From NCBI GenBank assembly GCA_029204225.1, contig CM055106.1, positions 44,119,003 to 44,183,002 of the forward strand: a stretch of DNA of 64,000 nt. The letters are read 5' to 3'. Shown here in pieces: positions 4,633 to 61,080 of the stretch. The position numbers and the translations under genes were made by a program. This DNA is from Diphasiastrum complanatum (Eukaryota > Streptophyta > Lycopodiopsida > Lycopodiales > Lycopodiaceae). Position 1 is the first letter of the stretch, and every line of letters begins with the position of its first letter. The notes beneath the pieces are model-generated. The model was not told the origin of the DNA. It ran no database searches and was given only the letters and a program-made list of their open reading frames with translations.

Positions 4633-5153
4633 TGTTGATTTCACATGTGTGGATTGTCCACAACATGTACTTGTGATCTCCTAAGGTGTGTAGATGCACC
4701 AAGATCAAGCCTAGATTGAGATTCAAGATCAATCTTAGATTCTATGGCAAAAACACACTACTACATGCATTCAATCACTTCCAACTCTCACTCACATGCG
4801 TGGGAAGTATTCAAAAATTATTCTAAGTAAAAACAAGCTGCTCTCCTTGGGTAGAGAGAGAAAAACCATCATGAGCTCTCGGGTAGAGAGAGAAAGCTAG
4901 AAATCCAATAACACTAAAAATCCACACAATCACCAAATCAATTAGATCCAAAATGAGGAGTACAATGATACTAGTAGATCCACGAGCTACCGCTATGCTT
5001 AACTATGATTGGACCACACTTTGCCACCTCTTAATCCTATTGGACCATTGATCCATGCACCTTAATTCTATTGGACTATATTCAAGCACACCTCAAATTC
5101 CTATTGGACCACACATGGTTCCACCTCTAAATCCTATTGGACCTCTTAGAATT
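4633..5153 (-). mobile_element. Family A LTR, truncated and diverged
   Basis: On the plus strand it begins TGTTGATTTCACATGTGTGG, the reverse of the 3' end of the family A LTR (compare 38,297 TGTTAAATTTCACACGTG). It carries the same repeated ctctctacccgag-type motif and the same row of ATTGG (CCAAT) boxes. It stops at about 5,153, so the first 200 bp or so of the LTR are missing. It is clearly more diverged than the two A LTRs at 30.5 and 38.3 kb. Confidence 0.85.
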
Positions 5154-5154
5154 T

Positions 5155-5726
5155 TAGGTCAAGTCCATAGGGTTGGTCATGTCATTTTGGTAGTGATTCC
5201 TAGTTTATAGGACCTAAATCCTAGATTTGAGATGAAAATTTGACCAACTAGCTATCTACCAAGCATGACTCTAGGAAATAGACTAGGGTTTCATTTTAGG
5301 GCAAGAAGAGTGAGTTAACTTCCTTATTGCATGCTGGAAATCCACCTAACTTCAAAAAGAAAGTCGAATTTGCTATGTATTCCAAGCTCCCATAGTGAGA
5401 AGATAGAAATTCTTTTTTGGAGCTCATTAGCAATCTCAAGCTAGTTCACTATGTACATTGAGTTTTTGTGATCCAAATGAAACCAAATCAATTTGTACTT
5501 GTTTCTCAGGTTGAAGGTCGTACTACAGACTGTAGTACACACGTGTGGTCTCAGATTTCAATGTTGATCAATGCTTTTGATTGTTAATGCTTGTTGTGTG
5601 TCAAATTGCCAATCTAGATCAACTTTTTTGTGTCTAGTTTTTTGATAGATAGTTAAGCAAGCATCCAATCACTCTTGTGGATCTTTTGGAGATCCATTTA
5701 TGGTCCTAAAGTATAGTACTTTCACA
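5155..5726 (+). mobile_element. Family C 5' LTR, first ~130 bp missing
   Basis: Nearly collinear with 7,371-7,939. It ends in TTTCACA and is followed directly by a primer binding site, so it acts as a 5' LTR. The start of the LTR is replaced by the family A fragment that ends at 5,153. Confidence 0.85.
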
Positions 5727-5740
5727 TGGTATCAGAGCCA
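5727..5740 (+). promoter_or_regulatory. Primer binding site (tRNA-iMet type)
   Basis: TGGTATCAGAGCCA lies immediately after the LTR terminus. It is complementary to the 3' end of plant initiator tRNA-Met, the usual primer of Ty1/copia elements. Confidence 0.85.
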
Positions 5741-6389
5741 AGTACAAGAGCATAAGCCATTGATCTAATGCAAATCCATTTTTAGCAAGTTTTGGTGCTA
5801 AAAACTAGTATTGAGAGGGCAAGCTAAAATCTTGATTTTGGTGAGGAGATTTGATCCCAAAATTGGTAGGGGTCCAAATCCATACTGTCCATATGTGTGG
5901 GCACCTCTGAACCTGCATTTAAAGCATGGTATTCGTTTGATCCAAAGAAATTCAATTTGTGAGCTTTTGATGTAATTTTTGGTGGAAATCTTAGGATAAG
6001 CTACCAAGATTGAGTGCCATTGATTAGATTTGACATAGGGTCATGAATTCTAACTAATCTAGGCTGAAATCAGGTCCTCTAAACTTGTTTTACAGGTCTT
6101 GAAAGTACATCAAAAAGTGTGAGGGAGATTTAGTCATGTTATTTTCCAAAAATAGCCAAAATTGACAAGATTTGATTGTAAGTAGATTTCATGTCATCTT
6201 ATCTTCATTCCAACTTTGTGAGAGAATGCTAGAACTGAGATTATAAGTCCATTTGTTGGATTAGAAATCTAATTTGAGTGAAAAACTACAAGAGAGAGAC
6301 CTTAGTGAGTTTCTAGAGACAATCAAATTCATTTCTTGGCAAGATTTGTTTGAAAGTAGTTTTCACTGTCTACTATCTTTGAGTTCTTT

Positions 6390-7031
6390 TTGGAAAGTAG
6401 TAGGAGACATGAGGTGACTTGTTTCTTACCTTTAAGATTCATGGTGTTTATTACTTTGTATGACAAGACAATGAAATGGAATGCTTTGAAATCTACATTT
6501 GTTGTTGATAAAGCAATTTCATTGGATAAGTATTTTTGTAATAGTTTGAATAGAGTCATAAAAGATGAAACATCATTTGCTTTGGAAATCTTTGTGTCCA
6601 CATGCTTTGTGCATGATCATTCCAATGTAAGGACCAAAGATTATCCTATTTTAATGATAGGAATAATGGTAGTGTTTTGCTCTTCAAGTAGAGATTGTAG
6701 AATCTACTTGTTTTCAACCAAAGAATTTGTCAATGGTGGAAATGTGACCTTTCAAGAGTGGAAGATTTGTAAACTTGAAGAAGCACCTTTGGATCAACAC
6801 CTTATTCAATTCATTGATGTTTTGGAGTCAATTCAAGTGGAGGATCAAGCTCAAGGCCTGAGGACTCCAAGAAGAATCTTGAGTATCAAGATGGAGCCAT
6901 CAAGGCTCAATCATATGGATCAAGCAAGGCAAGTTGTCTTTGGCAACATTATTTATGCACTTAATATTTTAATTGATGTATCTTCAAGTGCACAAAATGC
7001 CTTGGAATCCATGGCTTGGAATGATGTTTAG
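6390..7031 (+). pseudogene. Integrase-derived ORF of family C deletion element
   Basis: An open frame of 213 codons. It is close (by eye about four residues in five) to the minus-strand frame at 28,567-27,875. Its order of motifs follows the C-terminal half of copia integrase: KTMK.. then YFCNSL, GIMVVFCSS, FSTKEFVNGGNVTFQE, then RTPRR and EPSRL of the integrase-RT linker. Compare GIMVGYSSTKKAYRV and RRDVLFHE in the family A polyprotein. The catalytic Glu segment (NGVAERKN in copia) reads HEVTCFLP, so no integrase activity is expected. It lies between the family C LTRs, downstream of the primer site. Either it is a neutral relic amplified after decay, or it is kept open for another reason. 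Confidence 0.6.
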
Positions 7032-27874: not shown

Positions 27875-28567
27875 TCATGTTATTCTTGGAGTCCTCGGGC
27901 CTTGATCTTGCTCCTCCAAATGACTTGACTCCAAACCATCAATGAATTGAATAAGGTGTTGATCCAAAGATGCTTCTTCAAGTTTACAAATCTTTCGCTC
28001 TTGAAAGATCACATTTCCACCATTGACAACAACTTTGATGGAAAATAAGTAGATTCTACAATCTCTACTTGAAGAGCAAAACACTACCATTATTCCTATC
28101 ACTGAAATAGGATAATCTTTGGTCCTTACATTGGAATGATCATGCTCAAAGCCTGTGGACCCAAAGATTTCCAATACAAATGATGTTTCATCTTTTATGA
28201 CACTATTCAAACTATTACAAAAATAGTTATCCAATGCAATTGTTTTATCAACAAAAAATGGAGATTTGAAAGCATCAATTTTCATTGTCTTGTCATACAA
28301 AGTACTAAACATTATAGATCTTAAAGATAAGCAACAAGTCACTCCATGTCTACTAATACTATCCAAAAAGTATTCAAAGATAGTAGACTCTCCAATGCTC
28401 ACCATCCTTGCAAGATGCACAATTGGATGGACAATTTGCATGCAATTTGATGACTTGGCCATTGTCATTGAGGATTCCCTTGGAACTCTCATGATTTGAG
28501 GCTGATCCTCAAGATGTTCCTCCTTTTGATACTCCTCCTCAATGCAAGCAAGATCACACTTTGCCAA
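27875..28567 (-). pseudogene. Integrase-derived ORF, second copy, 230 codons
   Basis: An open frame strongly similar to 6,390-7,031, from SRHGVTC to DQGPRTPR, and directly followed by a family C LTR. Shared blocks include YFCNSLN.VIKDETSF, HDHSNVRTKDYPI, IGIMVVFCSSSRDCRIYLFS and FQE.KICKLEEA. It is diverged copia integrase tail without the catalytic Glu context. The N-terminal ~70 codons have no counterpart that I recognise. It has no internal stop. Confidence 0.55.
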
Positions 28568-52765: not shown

Positions 52766-52804
52766 CACGTGTGAGAATGAGGGGACGCTCTGCAGATATA
52801 AAAG
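52766..52804 (+). promoter_or_regulatory. G-box and TATA box upstream of the H3-like ORF
   Basis: ACACGTGTGAG (from about 52,766) and TATAAAAG (52,797-52,804), about 30 bp apart, lie 250-290 bp before the ATG at 53,054. The later ORF at 54,439 has the same order: CACATGTGTG, then TATATATAT at 54,202. Confidence 0.5.
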
Positions 52805-52890
52805 GATGTTTTGGGCTCATATTTCCGTTTCGGATTTCTTGGTTCTCTAGAGCTCCTCGAGATTCTACGTTCACTTGCCAACCTTGCTAT

Positions 52891-53053
52891 CCACATATCG
52901 CCACCACGTGTCCAGAGAGTTTGATACTAGTAAAGCTTTCCCCTTTGCGCGTCGTAGCGATACGCCATCTCGCATATCGTCATCACGTGCCTCCCTTGTC
53001 TGATATATTCTGTTCTCTCTGATTGGCGCGCCATAACGATACCTTAGGTTGAA
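52891..53053 (+). promoter_or_regulatory. Repeated-motif leader, copy 1
   Basis: ATATCGCCACCACGTGTCC at 52,894 and ATATCGTCATCACGTGCC at 52,974 lie about 80 bp apart and 80-160 bp before the ATG. GGCGCGCCATAACGATA follows just before the start codon. The same three blocks occur in order at 54,283, 54,372 and 54,422 before the second ORF. Confidence 0.55.
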
Positions 53054-54013
53054 ATGGCCTGTACCAAGCAGACAGCACGTCTTACCACATTTACCCCGCC
53101 TCCTCGTCCTCCTGTACAAAGGGCAGTGGGCACTGGTAGGAGAGTAGGTCGGCCTAGAAGACCATTGTTAAGGGATATCAGAAGACTACAGAGGACAACA
53201 AATCTTCTAAATCCTCGTGCTCCATTCTACAGGTCTGTGAAATTAGTGACAAGGTCACTCTCACATGATGTTCGCTGGAACATAACAGCCCTGGAATCCC
53301 TCCATACTGCCTATGAGGACTTTCAAGTTAAATTTTTTGAGGACTCTACACTTTGCACAGTGCACGCCAAGAGAGTTACCCTCATGCCTCAGGACATGCA
53401 TCTTGTCATGAGGCTGAGGAGTACATACGCTCAGGTCTTTAAGAGTGGCTTCACCTCTAGGCCACCACCTATAGAGAGAGAGCCTGTTCCTCAACAAAGA
53501 AGGAGAAAGCAGACCAAGCCCACCAGACCTGCCAGGCAAAGGGTCATAGTCAACAAATCACCATCCCCCCCTCATATCTCTCGTCCTTTGGTTGGACCAT
53601 CACACCATTTTGCAATGCGTTCTTCTCCTCCCGCCACCCCTAACTATTCAAGTAGTTCCTCTTCCATTCCCTCCATTCCATCCCACAATAACGAGGATAT
53701 GACCTCTACTGTAGATAAAATAATATCGGATCTAGATATAGCTTTAATAGGTGATTTTTATAAGGATCTTTGTGTAAGATTTCTTGTTGATCCGAAAGAT
53801 TCATTTTTGGATTCTGAGAGGTATATAGTTTTTGATGAGTATGTTCTCAAAGAGATTGATAAGCTAGGAGGTCAATTTTCTTTTTGTCTAAGTTCAATTA
53901 ATTATGTAAATCACAACACCCCTGCACGTGTGGCCACATGCTCATCACACAGACCTGCCACGTGTAAGGACATCAACGGTCTCATCGATCATACGACTGA
54001 CATGCACGTGTGA
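53054..54013 (+). CDS. Histone H3-like protein with long C-terminal extension, 319 aa
   Basis: Intronless open frame. Residues 1-10 (MACTKQTARL) match the H3 tail start, keeping Lys4 and Arg8 but with Arg2 to Cys and Lys9 to Leu; the rest of the tail is Pro/Arg-rich and lacks the K27 region. Residues 38-122 align without gaps to the H3 core: alphaN LRDIRRLQRTTNLL; alpha1 PFYRSVKLVTRSL; loop HDVRW; alpha2 ALESLHTAYEDF..FFEDSTLC; AKRVTLMPQDM (H3 AKRVTIMPKDI). Loop 1 has the canonical H3 length, yet a Trp where H3 has Phe, as in many CENH3 proteins. Residues 130-165 are basic, 168-212 Ser/Pro-rich, 213-285 acidic and hydrophobic; the last ~30 codons lie in a G-box repeat and may be read-through. 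Ordinary H3 is about 135 residues. Chromatin binding is an inference. It could be a transposon- or virus-borne histone gene or a retroposed CENH3/H3 variant. Confidence 0.72.
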   Translation: MACTKQTARLTTFTPPPRPPVQRAVGTGRRVGRPRRPLLRDIRRLQRTTNLLNPRAPFYRSVKLVTRSLSHDVRWNITALESLHTAYEDFQVKFFEDSTLCTVHAKRVTLMPQDMHLVMRLRSTYAQVFKSGFTSRPPPIEREPVPQQRRRKQTKPTRPARQRVIVNKSPSPPHISRPLVGPSHHFAMRSSPPATPNYSSSSSSIPSIPSHNNEDMTSTVDKIISDLDIALIGDFYKDLCVRFLVDPKDSFLDSERYIVFDEYVLKEIDKLGGQFSFCLSSINYVNHNTPARVATCSSHRPATCKDINGLIDHTTDMHV

Positions 54014-54165
54014 GGACAGTGTCCTGATATGGGCCACACACATGTAACGGGACGACTGGCTCGTATGATTATACAGCTGGCATGCACGTGCGAGAACACG
54101 TGTCAGGATCCAATTTGTACACATGTCATGCTAATGATTTGGTCGTCGTTTCCACATGTGTGACA
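53925..54165 (+). repeat. CACGTG-rich degenerate tandem repeat
   Basis: TGCACGTGTGGCC (53,933), GCCACGTGTAAGG (about 53,956), CATGCACGTGTGAG (54,001), CATGCACGTGCGAG (54,081), AACACGTGTCAGG (about 54,096) and CACATGTGTGAC (about 54,152). The two CATGCACGTG blocks are 80 bp apart and share flanking bases (ACTGACATG / AGCTGGCATG; GTGTCCTGAT / GTGTCAGGAT). It overlaps the end of the H3-like frame and precedes the second leader. Confidence 0.65.
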
Positions 54166-54201
54166 ATTTTTACCGCACGTTACCAATGCTCTGTATTACA
54201 C

Positions 54202-54438
54202 TATATATATGAGTGCTATTTTTTAAAATTAGTTTCGCATATTGAGTCCAAGAGACTGACCTGATCCAAAATTTGTACATACAATATCGCTACCACGCGC
54301 CCAACTGACGGTTCCATAGTCAAACTGCTCCTCCGGCGTGTAGTTTCGATATCCGAAATCATGAACAGTGCATATCGCCATCATGCGCATAGGTTTACAC
54401 CGTTTATGTCCCCGTCCTAACCGGCGCCTCATATCGAT
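54202..54438 (+). promoter_or_regulatory. Repeated-motif leader, copy 2, with TATA box
   Basis: TATATATAT (54,202), ATATCGCTACCACGCGCCC (54,283), ATATCGCCATCATGCGCA (54,372) and GGCGCCTCATATCGAT directly before the ATG. It is collinear with the leader of the H3-like ORF, with spacings of 80, 88 and 69 bp against 96, 79 and 82. Confidence 0.55.
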
Positions 54439-54795
54439 ATGGCCTCTTCTACTAGTTCGATCTATGATATAGCTCTTAGTTCTTTCCTTGTTGATGCTGA
54501 AGTTAGCAACAGACAGGCCATTTTTTGTCCTATTTCAATTTTTAGTTTGACATAGAGAGATTTGCTATTGAGCACAGGGAAGTTTTTTCCAAACTGTACA
54601 AGGATTTTTATGAGTGCTTGCAATAGGGTACCCTTCTGATGGACGGCCTAAGATTTGTGCATTTCACAGATTTGACTCATGCTCAGCCTAGTGCCAAGCA
54701 AAGGCATGATCGTAAGTTTACCAAACTTATCGATCTGTTTAAACATGTCATACCCTGTGAGGAACACAATCGAGTATGTCGCTTATTTTAGGAGT
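54439..54795 (+). pseudogene. Decayed ORF of unknown family sharing the leader of the H3-like ORF
   Basis: ATGGCC start as in the H3-like ORF. MASSTSSIYDIALSSFLVDA runs to TAG at 54,553; another frame then carries FDIERFAIEHREVFSKLYKD, FYECLQ, TAG, GTLLMDGLRFVHFTDLTHAQ and FTKLIDLFKHVIPCEEHNRV before a stop near 54,790. So there is at least one frameshift and one stop. LYKDFYE..LLMDGLRFVHF faintly recalls FYKDLC..FLDSERYIVF in the C-terminal extension of the H3-like protein; this is suggestive only. It overlaps the 3' end of the minus-strand gene at 54,748. Confidence 0.5.
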
Positions 54796-56129
54796 TGCAC
54801 ATGAATAACAGTCATTTTTTACCTGAAAACATGCTAGCCACCATATGTTGTTTTCTGATTGCACACTGAAGTTGAGATCCCTTGAGTTTGTTGCATTGCT
54901 CAATGCTCCATTCATGAGAGTAATACTTACTCTTTCCAACTTTTGTCCTTTTATAACTTTCGATTCATCTAGCTTGACCACCAGAATAAGTTTGCTCATA
55001 CTAACACTTGTTGTAATATTATAGAATTTCACTATAAATCTCAATAAATGATTCAAATCCACAAATAAGTTGTTGGTAGAATTATATGACAAATTGCCAG
55101 ACTTTGAATTGTAAATCTCATTGATGTGAAAAGAGATTCCATTGACGTTTTGCATACCCTTATTCAATACATCTCTCTCCAATCTTATCTGAAAAGGGCG
55201 AGGAATGGGAAATTTCTTACGTGCAATTGTCCAAAAGCCTCTTTAATGAATTTAAATATACTCGCATATGCCTCCCTACTAATACCTGAGAAATAACATG
55301 CTCCCTGAATTAACGTTCGATCGATTACCTTACCGACCTCGTTCATCAAAGCCTCAGTGACCTTGGACTTGATTCGAGAATATCGATTATTGTCCAATAA
55401 AGACTTTGTGGACCTGGTTGTCAATACTAAATTCAATGATTTTTTGATCAGGTCATTGTCCTTCATATGCTCATTTGCAACCAATGCTGATCTGCAAATG
55501 ATAATGAAAATCAAGAAACCCAAATAGGACACATAATAAATGTCATGCTACTTCACAAAACTAAAATAAAACTGATTCAAATCAAATCCTTACTTGAATG
55601 CTTGAATCTTTTTTCTCCGTTGGCCTCCATTTAACGAAAGCTCATCAATGTCCTTCAGAATTCTTTTTCGCTTGTTTCTTTTTAATTTCTTATCTAGTAT
55701 GCGAGTTTCTTCTTTTAACTCGTCATTTGATATACGTAATGTCTGAAGAACTTGTCAGAATTGATCATTACTTGCATTCAAATTTAATATAATATTATGT
55801 AAATGTGCATTATCTTTTTTTGTTTGTGATAATGTGGTCTCTTTTTCTCTATAGTCAGCAAGCAAACCATTTAACATACATTCTAAACTCTGTATTTTCT
55901 GAACAAAGTTTGCAACACCATAAGTCATCAATCTTTCACAATAACCCAGTAAACCGTTTTCTCCGTCACACAAAAGCTTTATTGATTGTGTGATGGATTG
56001 AAATTGTGGAGCTTGCATCGAGATCGGATCCAATGGATACAAACTTCCGTCAATCCACAAATCGTAATTCTTTCTTTGGTTGATTCTGTGAGTGATTATA
56101 TCAAGTGAAAAAACTGTGGATTCTTTCAC
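54748..56129 (-). pseudogene. Spliced gene of unknown family, one in-frame stop
   Basis: Exon 1 56,129-55,594: MKESTVFSLDIITHRINQRK, then LYPLDPISMQAPQFQSI and a heptad-rich coiled-coil-like stretch with an in-frame TGA at 55,757, then a basic segment (KKLKRNKRKRILKDID). Intron 55,593-55,492 (102 bp, GTAAGG..TTTGCAG). Exon 2: ALVANEHMKDNDLIKKSLNL .. EVGKVIDRTLIQGACYFSGI .. KEAFGQLH. Then a GTAAGA..TTTTCAG interval of only 32 bp (55,220-55,189) whose removal keeps the frame. Exon 3: IRLERDVLNKGMQNVNGISF .. SVSMSKLILVVKLDESKVIK .. NIWWLACFQV, to a stop at 54,748. I do not recognise the protein. The first splice junction is well formed; the 32-bp interval is too short for a normal plant intron and may be an internally deleted one. 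Confidence 0.5.
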
Positions 56130-56139
56130 TACTCCTCTT

Positions 56140-56600
56140 TTAGCTATCGGAACATTCTTGACAGGGTTATATTTGTATATCTATCAAGTATCATCCAATA
56201 AGTATATAGTCGCTCTGTGTAACTTTTAGATTAGAGTAATTAAGCATCTACAACTAATCAGGAAATTACAAGAGTGGCAGATTGGCCATGACCTAGAGTG
56301 TATCTGCTAACGTCATGCCATCATATCAGATATCTGTACTTTTGGGTACTTGCATGATCTTGCTGGTACTCTTTGGAGCGTTGAGGGCAGAAAAGATTTT
56401 GCGACGTTTTTTTTGTCGCGTAGTTTGGTTTGTCGTCATTGTCTGACTTTCTTGTGCTGGACCACAAAAGATTCTCGTTCGCAAATCTTTCGTGTTCGTG
56501 TCTTCTCGTCAGGTGTTCATGAATCTTTCATGCCTCGTGTCTCTTGACTTTCGTGTTCACGACCATTTTTGTCAGGCAGAGGGCTGAAAGCTAGCAAAGC
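56140..56600. other. No gene; CG-containing repeat-like sequence
   Basis: Bases 56,390-56,570 are rich in TCGTG/GTCGC words (TTTCGTGTTCGTGTCTTC, CTTTCGTGTTCACGACC). They recall the tail of repeat X at 21,260-21,400, but I could not establish a clean alignment. Confidence 0.35.
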
Positions 56601-58299: not shown

Positions 58300-61080
58300 A
58301 GTGAGGGAGAAAGAGAGTAAAATATATGTTAGAAAGAGAAAAACAAAAGAGAGAAAAAAGGTGGCAGTAGTCATTACGATGATGAAATGCTGCAAAATGC
58401 CTAATTTTGCTCAATTCATGGTACCCTCGCTATAATTTTACATGAAAATAAAGCCACACGAAGCATTAACACAATGAAAATTTCTTGATAGGAGTTCCAA
58501 ACACTACAAAGGAACAATAGTCTCTAACCCTAACTATTTATAATGGCTCAGAAATGGTGCCAAAACTAAGACCTAGCGAATTGCACCTACTTAATTGGGT
58601 GCAATAATCTTTTTTGGCCTGTCAATCGAATTCTATCCCAATAAATACTTTTGATTTATCACTCTTTCTAATTATAGCAACATGACATCTCCATGTACTC
58701 CTTGAAATCTAAACTTTGAGCAATAATGGATATGTTTTACCTACTAAGTACTTTTTGACTTGTGAATGAGCTTCCTCTTGACCCCGACTTGTGAATGGGA
58801 CATTCATGTATTTGCGAATGTCCTCAATGCATCCACTTTTTTTTATGTATGCCTTATGTCCAATATGTAAGTTCTTTGTGTGATCATTATTGGTGTACTT
58901 TGTAGGTTCTTTAAGGGGACCAATTACCTCATGCTCTTCGATGATTCATTGCCTGCTTTTTATGTAGGGTGTTTTACCCATTCTTCTTGTAAATGTTCTT
59001 AGAGTATTCATATGAATGGTTTCGTATAGTTTTTCAAAATCTATTATTACGGAGGTATACATTTTTTTTATGATAACACAAATGGGTCCCCCCTCCACCA
59101 TAGGTACTTGTTTCTTGTTAATAAACTTAGACAAATCATCAATTTGAGTGTTAAGGGGATGCCATTCTTATTTATGGTAATCTTTCTAATGGATCTCAAG
59201 GTGAGCATTTGTAGGTGCTAATGAAGAGAGGAGAATCATAGTAGAACTTTGAAAAGAAAAATGTGTTGTATTATAATAATGTTATCACATTGTCGCTCAA
59301 TATTGGCAATGAGTAAAACATGAGATTCAACCAGTCAACTAGTTGTTTCTTTGGCTTTTCTTAATATTTTTCAAGCTTTATAATTTGTGGCTATAAGTTT
59401 CTTTCTCTTCTGGATTATTTTATTCATGCTCAAATAAACTCTAATCTATTCTTTGCCAGCTCAGCACAATTATTCAACTACTCACAAATTGATTATGAAT
59501 TAACTAATTTAGGCTAACACTTCCATGCTTGAAATGAATGTCAAGAGAAATATAAAACAAGTAAAAAGCACGAGGATACAGTTATTTAAGGATCACCTAC
59601 CACTTTGGATATTTTGTAATAGATTTATACATGTAAAAGAGCCAAAACCATGAGTGTAATGATTAAGACCAGCAAGGTTGAGCTTTAAAGCTGTCCATGA
59701 TACCCATTGCCTTCCAAAACAGAGGAGAAGAACATCATATTTTGTCAAGAAAGAATTGACCTTAAATAGAATGAGTGTTTACCTTTTGTTGCAAGGGAGG
59801 CAAGCCTAGGTGGTTGTCCCTTATCATCTAGTAACAAAGGAGCTACTACTAAGATCACATACAATTATTTCAATGGAATTCCTAGCATCACAAAAGTAAG
59901 AATCATGTTACTCTCTCCATTATTTTTTACGTATTGTATTTCTTACACTTTACAAAACACACCTCACTACATAGCACACTAAGTGATGTATTGCTTGCTA
60001 TCAAGTTAAATCACGAGTACAATGATTTTGAGACTTGACTGATGTCTCATTTTTTATTTGCATTGGATGGCATGGCTGCTTCTACTTGTTTTGTCAATGT
60101 CAGAAGATTTATGAATGGAGATCTATATATTGTATTATAATGCATGGGCATAATTAAATATCACATGTATGGATATATATGTATAGCCTTTATTTTATTT
60201 TTTGCAATCACTATTCACAACTTGTGCATCAAAAGTTGCATAGCTATCACATATAGCAAATGTAGAATTCACATGGTTGTAGTGTACAAATGCAACAAAA
60301 CCTCTTAGACGTACTTAGATTGACCTCCATGGTGGACAAGGTGGACATGCTATCATAAAAAAAAGTTAAATCATTGTCAAGCGTATTAGGTAGAAGATAG
60401 CCTTGTAGCTATTTCTTTTACATTGATATAACAATTTAATAAGTAGCACTCTCTATTATTAATCTTGTGAGTCCTCAATGACAAATAAGTGCAAAGTATC
60501 TATAGAAAAGGAGATATAGTTTTAGCACATTCTCAAGAATTGCCATTTATGCTATATAAAAAAAACTACTAACCTAAAAAATCATAGTTCCTAATGCCTA
60601 TGCTCTCATAATCTTAAAATATCTTACATCATCAAAGACATGCGTCTCTTTTAAAAAGCACAAATATTTTTATGTACTGAAAAAATTTGAATTTTGTTAT
60701 GTTCATTTCTTGCCATTGAAAATTATTAACCAATCTCAAGGATGAAATTTTCATTTCAAATGGAAAAGGTTTTTAAAATTCACTAATAGACATGTTTATG
60801 GTTGGTAATTACTATTACATGGAACTCCTCTACCAATGGTTTCTTCATATAAATTTGTCTGCATATCTTCCTTTAGCCTTTTATATAATATCCATTCAAT
60901 TTAAGGTATAAAATCATAATTGTCAATCATTTTTTTAAATTGTTCACAAAATACTTCACAATGCTTTATGGCCTCCTAGAAATATCTCATCTATTTACAT
61001 GTATAAATATAATTCTAGAATGATTATGATTTAGTTTATCAAACTAAATGCAAAGAACATTTCCATCGTTTTTTCATAAA
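58300..61080. other. AT-rich sequence without recognisable genes
   Basis: No open frame above about 62 codons, no LTR ends and no primer sites. A poly-T/poly-A rich character and scattered short repeats only. Confidence 0.5.

What the first reader, a model, noticed from the sequence alone, without database searches (positions are those of the whole stretch)
53054..54013. Histone H3-like fold fused to a ~190-residue extension, inside a transposon-dense block
The sequence directly shows an intact 960-bp frame whose residues 1-10 copy the H3 tail start and whose residues 38-122 follow the whole H3 core without a gap. Lys4 context is kept while Lys9 is Leu and the K27 region is gone; loop 1 has H3 length but the Trp seen in many CENH3s. 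The extension (basic, Ser/Pro-rich, then acidic) is not part of any H3 that I know. No introns, an interrupted copia gag as its left border, and a leader shared with a neighbouring ORF suggest a mobile or viral cassette carrying its own H3, or a retroposed H3/CENH3 variant that became part of a repeat. A selfish element marking or evading chromatin with a mimic H3 is an attractive but unproven idea.
Basis: partly seen in the sequence, partly recalled or inferred. Interest (0 to 1): 0.9.

Follow-up and report, generated by a model that had tools for sequence, protein, structure and literature searches.

The report
Jumping genes carrying their own histone
The odd histone-like gene is a decayed copy of a gene carried by a very numerous family of plant DNA transposons, in which a version of histone H3 is joined to a SUMO-protease-like enzyme, hinting that these jumping genes interfere with the chromatin that silences them.

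Summary
In detail: window 53054-54013 encodes a real H3-type fold (Pfam 1.5e-22); tail Lys9 is Leu. It belongs to a dispersed DNA transposon. The window copy is a rearranged remnant (about 52777-56166); its last 31 codons are antisense intergenic DNA. Fuller relatives are about 9 kb, with inverted termini CATTA...TAATG, no target-site duplication at two empty sites, and genes A (transposase-like), B, C, D. In families F1 and F2 gene C is H3-like domain, linker, Ulp1/C48 protease. A rearranged family, F3, keeps A, B, D and an H3-like gene. Lower bounds: 129, 150, 175 matches for F1-F3; 324 and 2435 termini. In 12 F1 copies the histone core is under purifying selection (pN/pS 0.16, 95% 0.10-0.28); the linker is not clearly so. 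Best reading: gene C is a chromatin-anchored anti-silencing factor, an H3 mimic lacking K9 that brings a SUMO protease. Anatomy and selection are shown; mechanism is inferred. 'Element-borne histone' is supported; 'no introns' and 'shared leader' are not.

The parts
52777..53915 (+). Family F1 element segment in direct orientation: part of the B/C intergenic region plus the 5' part of gene C exon 1 (similarity to copy c6b reaches back to about 52761)
   Evidence: 87.3% identical over 1139 nt to 5062-6198 of the c3 element
53054..53917 (+). Native part of gene C exon 1: H3-like tail, H3 core, Ser/Pro-rich linker (288 codons)
   Evidence: codons 1-288 shared with genome copies
53054..53083 (+). 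H3-like tail start MACTKQTARL (R2C, K9L; copies c6a and c14 read MARTKQTARL)
53165..53419 (+). H3 histone-fold core (residues 38-122)
   Evidence: PF00125; PDB alignment; key residues compared
53918..54013 (+). Non-native end of the window ORF (codons 289-319 and stop), reading into inverted intergenic DNA
53920..54794 (-). Inverted F1 segment: B/C intergenic region and 5' part of gene B (its ATG, about 54439, lies on the + strand because of the inversion)
   Evidence: 81.8% over 903 nt to c3 element 5032-4134
54795..56166 (-). Inverted F1 segment: gene A (transposase-like) fragments; holds most of ORF 54748-55155 (-)
   Evidence: 90.6% over 1373 nt to c3 element 1680-356; conserved blocks

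Best explanation
The window ORF is the broken first exon of gene C of a high-copy terminal-inverted-repeat DNA transposon (family F1 here). SHOWN: the element family has about 9-kb members with TIRs and genes A-D; in families F1 and F2 gene C encodes an H3-type histone fold followed, through a linker and three further exons, by a Ulp1/C48 protease domain (splicing read from the DNA, not from RNA); an H3-like gene is kept with A, B and D in a rearranged family (F3); the histone core is under purifying selection in F1; integration leaves no target-site duplication in the two cases with an empty site. INFERRED: gene C is an anti-silencing factor. Its H3 core, which keeps residues of the H3-H3' bundle and DNA contact, would enter nucleosomes or H4/chaperone complexes. 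Its tail cannot carry K9 methylation in the three families with an H3-type tail (position 9 is Leu or Ile, Asp, Ala). The attached Ulp1 domain would strip SUMO from silencing factors at that chromatin. In F1 the H3 K9L tail could also act on H3K9 methyltransferases in trans.
For: Histone domain. Dispersed copies: 129 F1, 150 F2, 175 F3 matches, the searches scoring 125, 150 and 150 of 7702, 7728 and 25377 candidates. Termini: 324 and 2435 sites with 3 or fewer mismatches, 0 in the reversed control. Anatomy and TIRs. Synteny and coding conservation F1/F2; F4, one copy; F3 (D in one copy, B and A in another). Ulp1: Peptidase_C48 E 1e-4 (F1 copy c3, 22.7 bits against a cut-off of 20.7) and 1.1e-10 (F2 copy L030, 42.1 bits); same 4-exon layout, F2 borders read by eye. 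Selection: F1 core pN/pS 0.16 [0.10-0.28] against linker 0.76 [0.49-1.30], CpG-masked, 12 copies not chosen for open frames; unmasked 0.19 against 0.71. No TSD: empty sites for c11 and the nested F2 copy. Tails: F1 position 9 Leu in 11 of 12, Ile in 1; F2 Asp in 7 of 7 read; F4 Ala in the one copy. [quoted passage not shown] Ulp1-bearing Vandal transposons cause hypomethylation of their relatives, though that review calls the role of Ulp1 unknown (PMC13317346, passages).
Against: No expression, protein or localisation data. The tail itself shows no constraint (pN/pS 0.80, 95% 0.33-2.46) and differs between families, so a K9L effect is at best family-specific. In F1 the start of the protease part (codons 289-362) is not clearly constrained either (0.69, 0.44-1.21), unlike F2 (0.21). 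The F2 core value is weaker (0.57 unmasked, 0.38 masked, 7 copies, no interval computed). Family F3 has no H3-type tail and no Ulp1 was seen in what I read. The usual catalytic Asp reads Asn in F1 copies c3, c6a, c14 and in the F2 copies read (Asp in F1 copy c7), so activity is uncertain. Synonymous divergence differs between regions of F1 (0.07-0.21 masked), which makes ratio comparisons rough. The single-sequence AlphaFold model was uninformative (mean pLDDT 43.1). Gene A matches no transposase family, so calling it a transposase rests on position, conservation and a DDE-like motif pattern recalled from other families.
Confidence: 0.5

Rival explanations
1. The H3 domain is a structural part of the transposition machine: it helps wrap or synapse transposon ends, or guides integration to particular chromatin, and Ulp1 processes or de-SUMOylates the transposase. 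Silencing is not the target.
For: The H3 gene is kept together with the transposase-like gene A in two different gene orders. The core is conserved, the tail is not shown to be. F3 lacks a usual H3 tail and a visible Ulp1, so the constant part is the histone fold.
Against: No transposase is known to me that needs its own histone; nothing here shows contact with A; insertion sites show no obvious sequence preference in 8 insertions.
Confidence: 0.25
2. The H3 part is a centromere-histone (CENH3) mimic that steers elements to, or away from, centromeric chromatin.
For: The alpha-N end reads LIPRAPF, as LIPxAPF in plant CENH3s (recalled sequences), and F2 loop 1 is one residue longer than H3. F3/F5 fall on the side of CENH3 and host H3 in the tree.
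Against: F1+F2+F4 form their own clade (98/98) apart from the three CENH3s typed in. The F1 loop has H3 length. Matches lie at many positions on contigs C1-C23; centromere positions are not known to me.
Confidence: 0.12
3. A captured host H3 fragment riding along without function, as in Pack-type transposons.
For: Plant transposons often capture gene pieces (recalled); many copies hold stops (61 of 150 F2 rows by hand count; 7 of 12 F1 copies).
Against: Purifying selection on the F1 core, presence in four families sharing genes A and B, and the same exon layout in families about 45% identical in the histone part.
Confidence: 0.06
4. An endogenous DNA virus carrying a histone, as some insect and giant viruses do (recalled).
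For: Several unknown genes and a Ulp1-type protease, a class also used by some DNA viruses (recalled).
Against: TIR-bounded, under 10 kb, thousands of termini; no capsid or polymerase match among the pieces scanned in Pfam; no related record in IMG/VR with the two queries tried.
Confidence: 0.03

Closest known systems
VANDAL/Mutator transposons with VANC and the Ulp1-bearing KIU genes (PMC13317346 passages; PMC5735166 passages, and abstract start)
   Same: A DNA transposon with several genes, one an accessory protein that relieves silencing, in some families with a Ulp1 domain.
   Different: The word histone does not occur in the main text of PMC13317346; VANC recognises short DNA motifs; different genes, and Mutator's long TSD (recalled) is absent here.
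TET/JBP-bearing fungal DNA transposons (PMC12730594 passages)
   Same: DNA transposons of several lineages carrying a DNA-modification gene.
   Different: The gene is a dioxygenase; TSDs of 2-8 bp in the passages seen; other transposases.
Ginger1 transposons with Ulp1 (PMC2836005 passages)
   Same: Ulp1 catalytic domain encoded by a DNA transposon.
   Different: There Ulp1 is fused to an integrase-type transposase; 'histone' does not occur in that paper's text; 4-5 bp TSD (passage).
Spy group of PHIS transposons (PMC4482050 passages)
   Same: No target-site duplication; inverted termini.
   Different: Spy inserts within AAATTT; the eight targets viewed here do not; no PHIS transposase match in Pfam.
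Ectopic H3 K9L in Neurospora (PMC3248561 abstract and passages) and H3K9M in fission yeast (PMC5030085, abstract start in the listing)
   Same: An extra H3 lacking K9 acts dominantly on silencing; F1 carries the same K9L change.
   Different: Those are laboratory mutants of full H3; here the rest of the tail is replaced and a protease is attached.
Virus-borne histones (bracovirus H4, giant-virus histone fusions; recalled, not tested)
   Same: A genetic parasite encoding a core histone.
   Different: Those are viruses; here it is a dispersed transposon and an H3-Ulp1 fusion.

Membership tests
Core histone H3 | Significant match to the core histone profile over the fold | tested here: met
   PF00125 1.5e-22; the 60 PDB sequences listed of 177 are H3 forms
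Core histone H3 | H3-H3' bundle and L2 residues (H113, K115, R116, T118, D123) | tested here: met
   31 element-type cores: H113 31, K115 31, D123 29 of 31; R116, T118 and the class at 123 were required by my extraction pattern, which also left out 4 of 12 F1 copies
Core histone H3 | Conserved modifiable tail (K4, K9, K14, K27, K36) | tested here: not met
   F1 keeps K4 in 12 of 12 copies, position 9 is Leu or Ile; the later lysines are not recognisable
CENH3 | Longer loop 1 than H3 | tested here: inconclusive
   F1 same length, F2 one residue longer
CENH3 | Groups with CENH3 in a tree | tested here: not met
CENH3 | Sits at centromeres | not testable with these tools
   needs ChIP or tagging
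Ulp1/C48 protease | Profile match above Pfam cut-off | tested here: met
   22.7 and 42.1 bits against 20.7
Ulp1/C48 protease | Catalytic His, Asp, Gln, Cys | tested here: inconclusive
   HW, Q and C present in c3 and F2; the Asp position reads Asn in c3, c6a, c14 and F2, Asp in c7
CACTA/CMC transposons | 2-4 bp TSD and matching transposase | tested here: not met
   no TSD at two empty sites; no transposase family in Pfam; TSD range from a passage of PMC4482050
Spy (PHIS) transposons | No TSD | tested here: met
   two empty sites; of eight insertions viewed, five no repeat, two a single base, one a 3-bp match
Spy (PHIS) transposons | AAATTT target and PHIS transposase | tested here: not met
   8 target sites; no Pfam transposase match
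LTR retrotransposons | Long terminal direct repeats | tested here: not met
   self-comparison of the c3 stretch shows no direct repeat at the element ends; ends are inverted
Plavaka B | CATCA..TGATG ends with 2-3 bp TSD | tested here: not met
   ends CATTA..TAATG, no TSD; criteria from a passage of PMC12730594

The most novel reading that the evidence does not exclude
A whole superfamily of DNA transposons, new in its transposase and its duplication-free insertion, has a core histone as one of its standing genes, and in two of its families the histone is welded to a SUMO protease. The elements make their own K9-less nucleosomes, or H3-H4 complexes, that bring a SUMO protease to their chromatin and so disarm silencing. 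In this genome the element-borne H3 gene copies outnumber the host's intronless H3 genes many times over.
Probability: 0.35. Interest if true: 0.96.

Novelty: new variant of a known kind. Interest (0 to 1): 0.88.

Why it matters
Transposons are silenced through marks on host histone H3. A large, long-lived transposon group that carries its own H3, fused to a protease of the class that removes SUMO, would be a direct counter-move in that conflict and a natural relative of the K9L and K9M mutants that act dominantly in fungi. It makes testable whether a mobile element can change the nucleosome itself. It also gives a large set of natural H3 variants, and warns that histone gene counts in such genomes are inflated by transposons.

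Tried and rejected
Rejected: chance ORF or non-histone; single host variant with read-through; LTR-borne or retroposed gene; virus (no relative in IMG/VR with two queries). The 'shared leader' was tested and not confirmed. Gene A was sought in Pfam in pieces and as joined blocks and against PDB sequences: nothing significant (best PDB E 1.1), so the superfamily is unnamed. Weak Pfam hits below cut-off for other pieces (DUF4292 0.0088 for gene D of F2, DUF5540 0.023 for gene A of F3, PB1 0.052 for gene D of F3) were not followed. Host CENH3 was sought with a recalled Arabidopsis core (150 of 5516 candidates scored): the best 13 places coincide with the H3 places, the other listed ones are 47-56% identical, and no CENH3 gene was recognised. 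AlphaFold of the window protein alone had mean pLDDT 43.1 and was not used further. A first regular expression found nothing and was corrected. Literature: of ten searches, five asked about histones in transposons: searches returned no paper; one search listed 15 of 87 papers, of which I saw titles and abstract starts, none about it. Repbase and most subscription papers are not covered.

Full report
WHAT WAS CHECKED. The ORF 53054-54013 is intact at 319 codons. It matches the core histone profile at 1.5e-22, and the solved-structure relatives listed are H3 forms (60 of 177 shown). The tail begins MACTKQTARL; K4 is kept and K9 is Leu.

THE GENOME SHOWS A REPEAT. A protein search of the window's own genome (1.74 Gb, 5176 contigs) gave 129 matches, 63-100% identical, with some on each of the contigs C1-C23. 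Only 125 of 7702 candidates were scored, so this is a lower bound. In the listed copies the similarity stops by about codon 288-298, where the window copy departs from them. Twenty-kb stretches round ten copies, compared with each other and the window, share a block of up to 9 kb round the histone ORF. Three of the ten (c3, c6a, c11) reach both ends, c6a with an internal inversion and c11 with an inserted copia-like element.

ELEMENT ANATOMY. Copy c3 runs from 4801 to about 13818 of its stretch. Its ends are imperfect inverted repeats of about 33 bp, CATTAGAGGAGTT... and CATTACATGAGTT.... There are no direct repeats at its ends. A second family, F2, was found nested inside the F1 copy on C7; it is 9.3 kb, its TIR about 42 bp, and its ends also read CATTA...TAATG. 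Genome-wide, the F1 left terminus occurs at 324 sites and the F2 terminus at 2435 sites with up to 3 mismatches, against 0 for the reversed control. F2 termini count both ends and probably include short deletion derivatives.

NO TARGET DUPLICATION. Two insertions have a recognisable empty site. Copy c11 sits in a copia-type sequence whose uninterrupted relative lies in the window at 46259-46061, and the joined flanks match it at 97% through the junction. The nested F2 copy splits an F1 sequence that copies c3 and c6a carry whole. In both, no base is duplicated or lost at the junction. Of eight insertions viewed (four known only by their two termini), five show no repeat, two a single matching base and one a 3-bp match, TCA.

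FOUR GENES. A translated comparison of F1 and F2 shows conserved coding blocks in the same order: A (+, transposase-like, several exons, with SAGDLK...HPCLYC and SSQGMEKSHWQAR motifs), B (-), C (+, histone) and D (-). The one F4 copy read (L058) shows the start of A, B and the histone gene in the same order. In family F3, one copy (L057) has D and the histone gene on one strand, and sequence downstream of another copy (L059) has B and A homologs on the other strand, so F3 is a rearranged cousin. In F3 the H3 part ends a 394-codon proline-rich frame and stops where H3 stops. Genes A, B and D have no Pfam match above cut-off.

GENE C IS AN H3-ULP1 FUSION IN F1 AND F2. Downstream of the histone exon, three more exons with GT-AG borders keep the frame in copy c3 (518 aa, no stop); copies c6a and c14 are broken. 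The same four-exon layout was read by eye in F2. Pfam finds Peptidase_C48 above its cut-off in both (22.7 bits, 1e-4; 42.1 bits, 1.1e-10) beside the histone. The His, Gln and Cys positions are present in c3 and F2; the usual Asp reads Asn in c3, c6a, c14 and F2, and Asp in F1 copy c7. I did not splice F4. In F3 no Ulp1 was seen, but its flanks were read only in part.

THE WINDOW COPY. It is a remnant: 52777-53915 in direct orientation, then 53920-54794 and 54795-56166 inverted. Neither terminus was found there: the only window site within 9 mismatches of 30 is at 58484. Codons 289-319 of the ORF are therefore an accident of the inversion. Left of it lies what reads by eye as a copia gag fragment (no Pfam match); right of it lies DNA repeated in other stretches.

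NUMBERS AND KINSHIP. F2 gave 150 matches, of which by my hand count 89 of 150 have no stop. F3 gave 175 matches from 150 scored of 25377 candidates. The Pfam histone search gave 153 matches from 150 scored of 6325 candidates: 13 places at 163.7-165 bits, two of which I read and which are canonical H3, and then places at 109.5 bits or less. I fetched 20 of the listed places: 2 canonical H3, 2 H3.3-type exon loci, 12 F3, 1 F2, 1 F4 and 2 unplaced variants. A tree of 35 cores puts F1, F2 and F4 together (98/98), apart from host H3, three recalled CENH3 cores, F3, F5 and F6; deeper order is unsure, the bootstrap had not settled and the root is arbitrary.

SELECTION. I used 12 F1 copies without choosing open frames (the window, ten aligned copies, L036) and masked CpG sites: core pN/pS 0.16 (95% 0.10-0.28 by codon bootstrap), tail 0.80 (0.33-2.46), linker 0.76 (0.49-1.30), codons 289-362 0.69 (0.44-1.21). 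Unmasked: 0.19, 0.93, 0.71, 0.56. In 7 F2 copies, six chosen for open frames, masked (unmasked): core 0.38 (0.57), tail 0.49 (0.67), linker 1.84 (1.19), codons 251-328 0.21 (0.21), without intervals. Among 31 element-type cores H113 and K115 are kept in 31, R83 in 30, R69 and D123 in 29, with the caveat that the extraction pattern itself required R116, T118 and the class at 123 and left out 4 of 12 F1 copies. So the F1 histone fold has been kept by selection during spread; linker and tail are not shown to be.

MECHANISM. The fold, its conservation and its fusion to a protease of the SUMO class point to a chromatin-bound accessory factor. In none of the three families with an H3-type tail is K9 present: Leu in 11 of 12 F1 copies and Ile in one, Asp in the 7 F2 tails read, Ala in the one F4 copy. 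[quoted passage not shown] Ulp1-bearing Vandal transposons cause hypomethylation of their relatives, the role of Ulp1 there being unknown (PMC13317346). I therefore favour an anti-silencing H3 mimic that brings a SUMO protease to chromatin. I put the anatomy at about 0.9 and this mechanism at about 0.4. The chief rival is a structural role in transposition, which fits F3 better.

NOVELTY. Transposons with accessory chromatin or DNA-modification genes are known (VANC, TET/JBP, Ulp1). A core histone as a standing transposon gene is not in what my five searches on it returned (four gave no paper, one a list of 15 of 87 titles); Repbase and most subscription journals were outside reach. I file it as a new variant of a known kind, with the bolder reading kept in the novel case.

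Noticed in passing
L057:4349-5530 and L039-L042, L044-L046, L048, L050, L052, L053, L056: Family F3: an H3 core at the C-end of a long proline-rich protein (read in full in L057 only), in an element that also carries gene D (L057) and genes B and A (seen downstream of another copy, L059); 175 matches in the genome. Its protease, if any, and its ends were not found.
   Followed up: partly
L043, L051: Two further H3-like variants (L051 called F5, L043 called F6) that fit none of the families; their surroundings were not read.
   Followed up: no
L009/L010 (copy c6a): Copy c6a carries a large internal inversion upstream of gene C; the window copy is also inverted internally, so inversions may be frequent in F1.
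   Followed up: no
G000:C1:47860002-47862593 (ends in L062, L063): An F2 terminus pair only 2.6 kb apart, so short non-autonomous derivatives probably exist and inflate the terminus count.
   Followed up: no
L037, L038: Two host intronless H3 genes have Ala31, Tyr41, Ser87 and Leu90, a mix of the residues recalled for flowering-plant H3.1 and H3.3; this may point to a non-flowering plant.
   Followed up: no
window 6441-7031 and 27875-28492: Two ORFs match the Pfam model 'Retroviral polymerase SH3-like domain' (E 9.8e-7, and 5.9e-6 just below cut-off).
   Followed up: no
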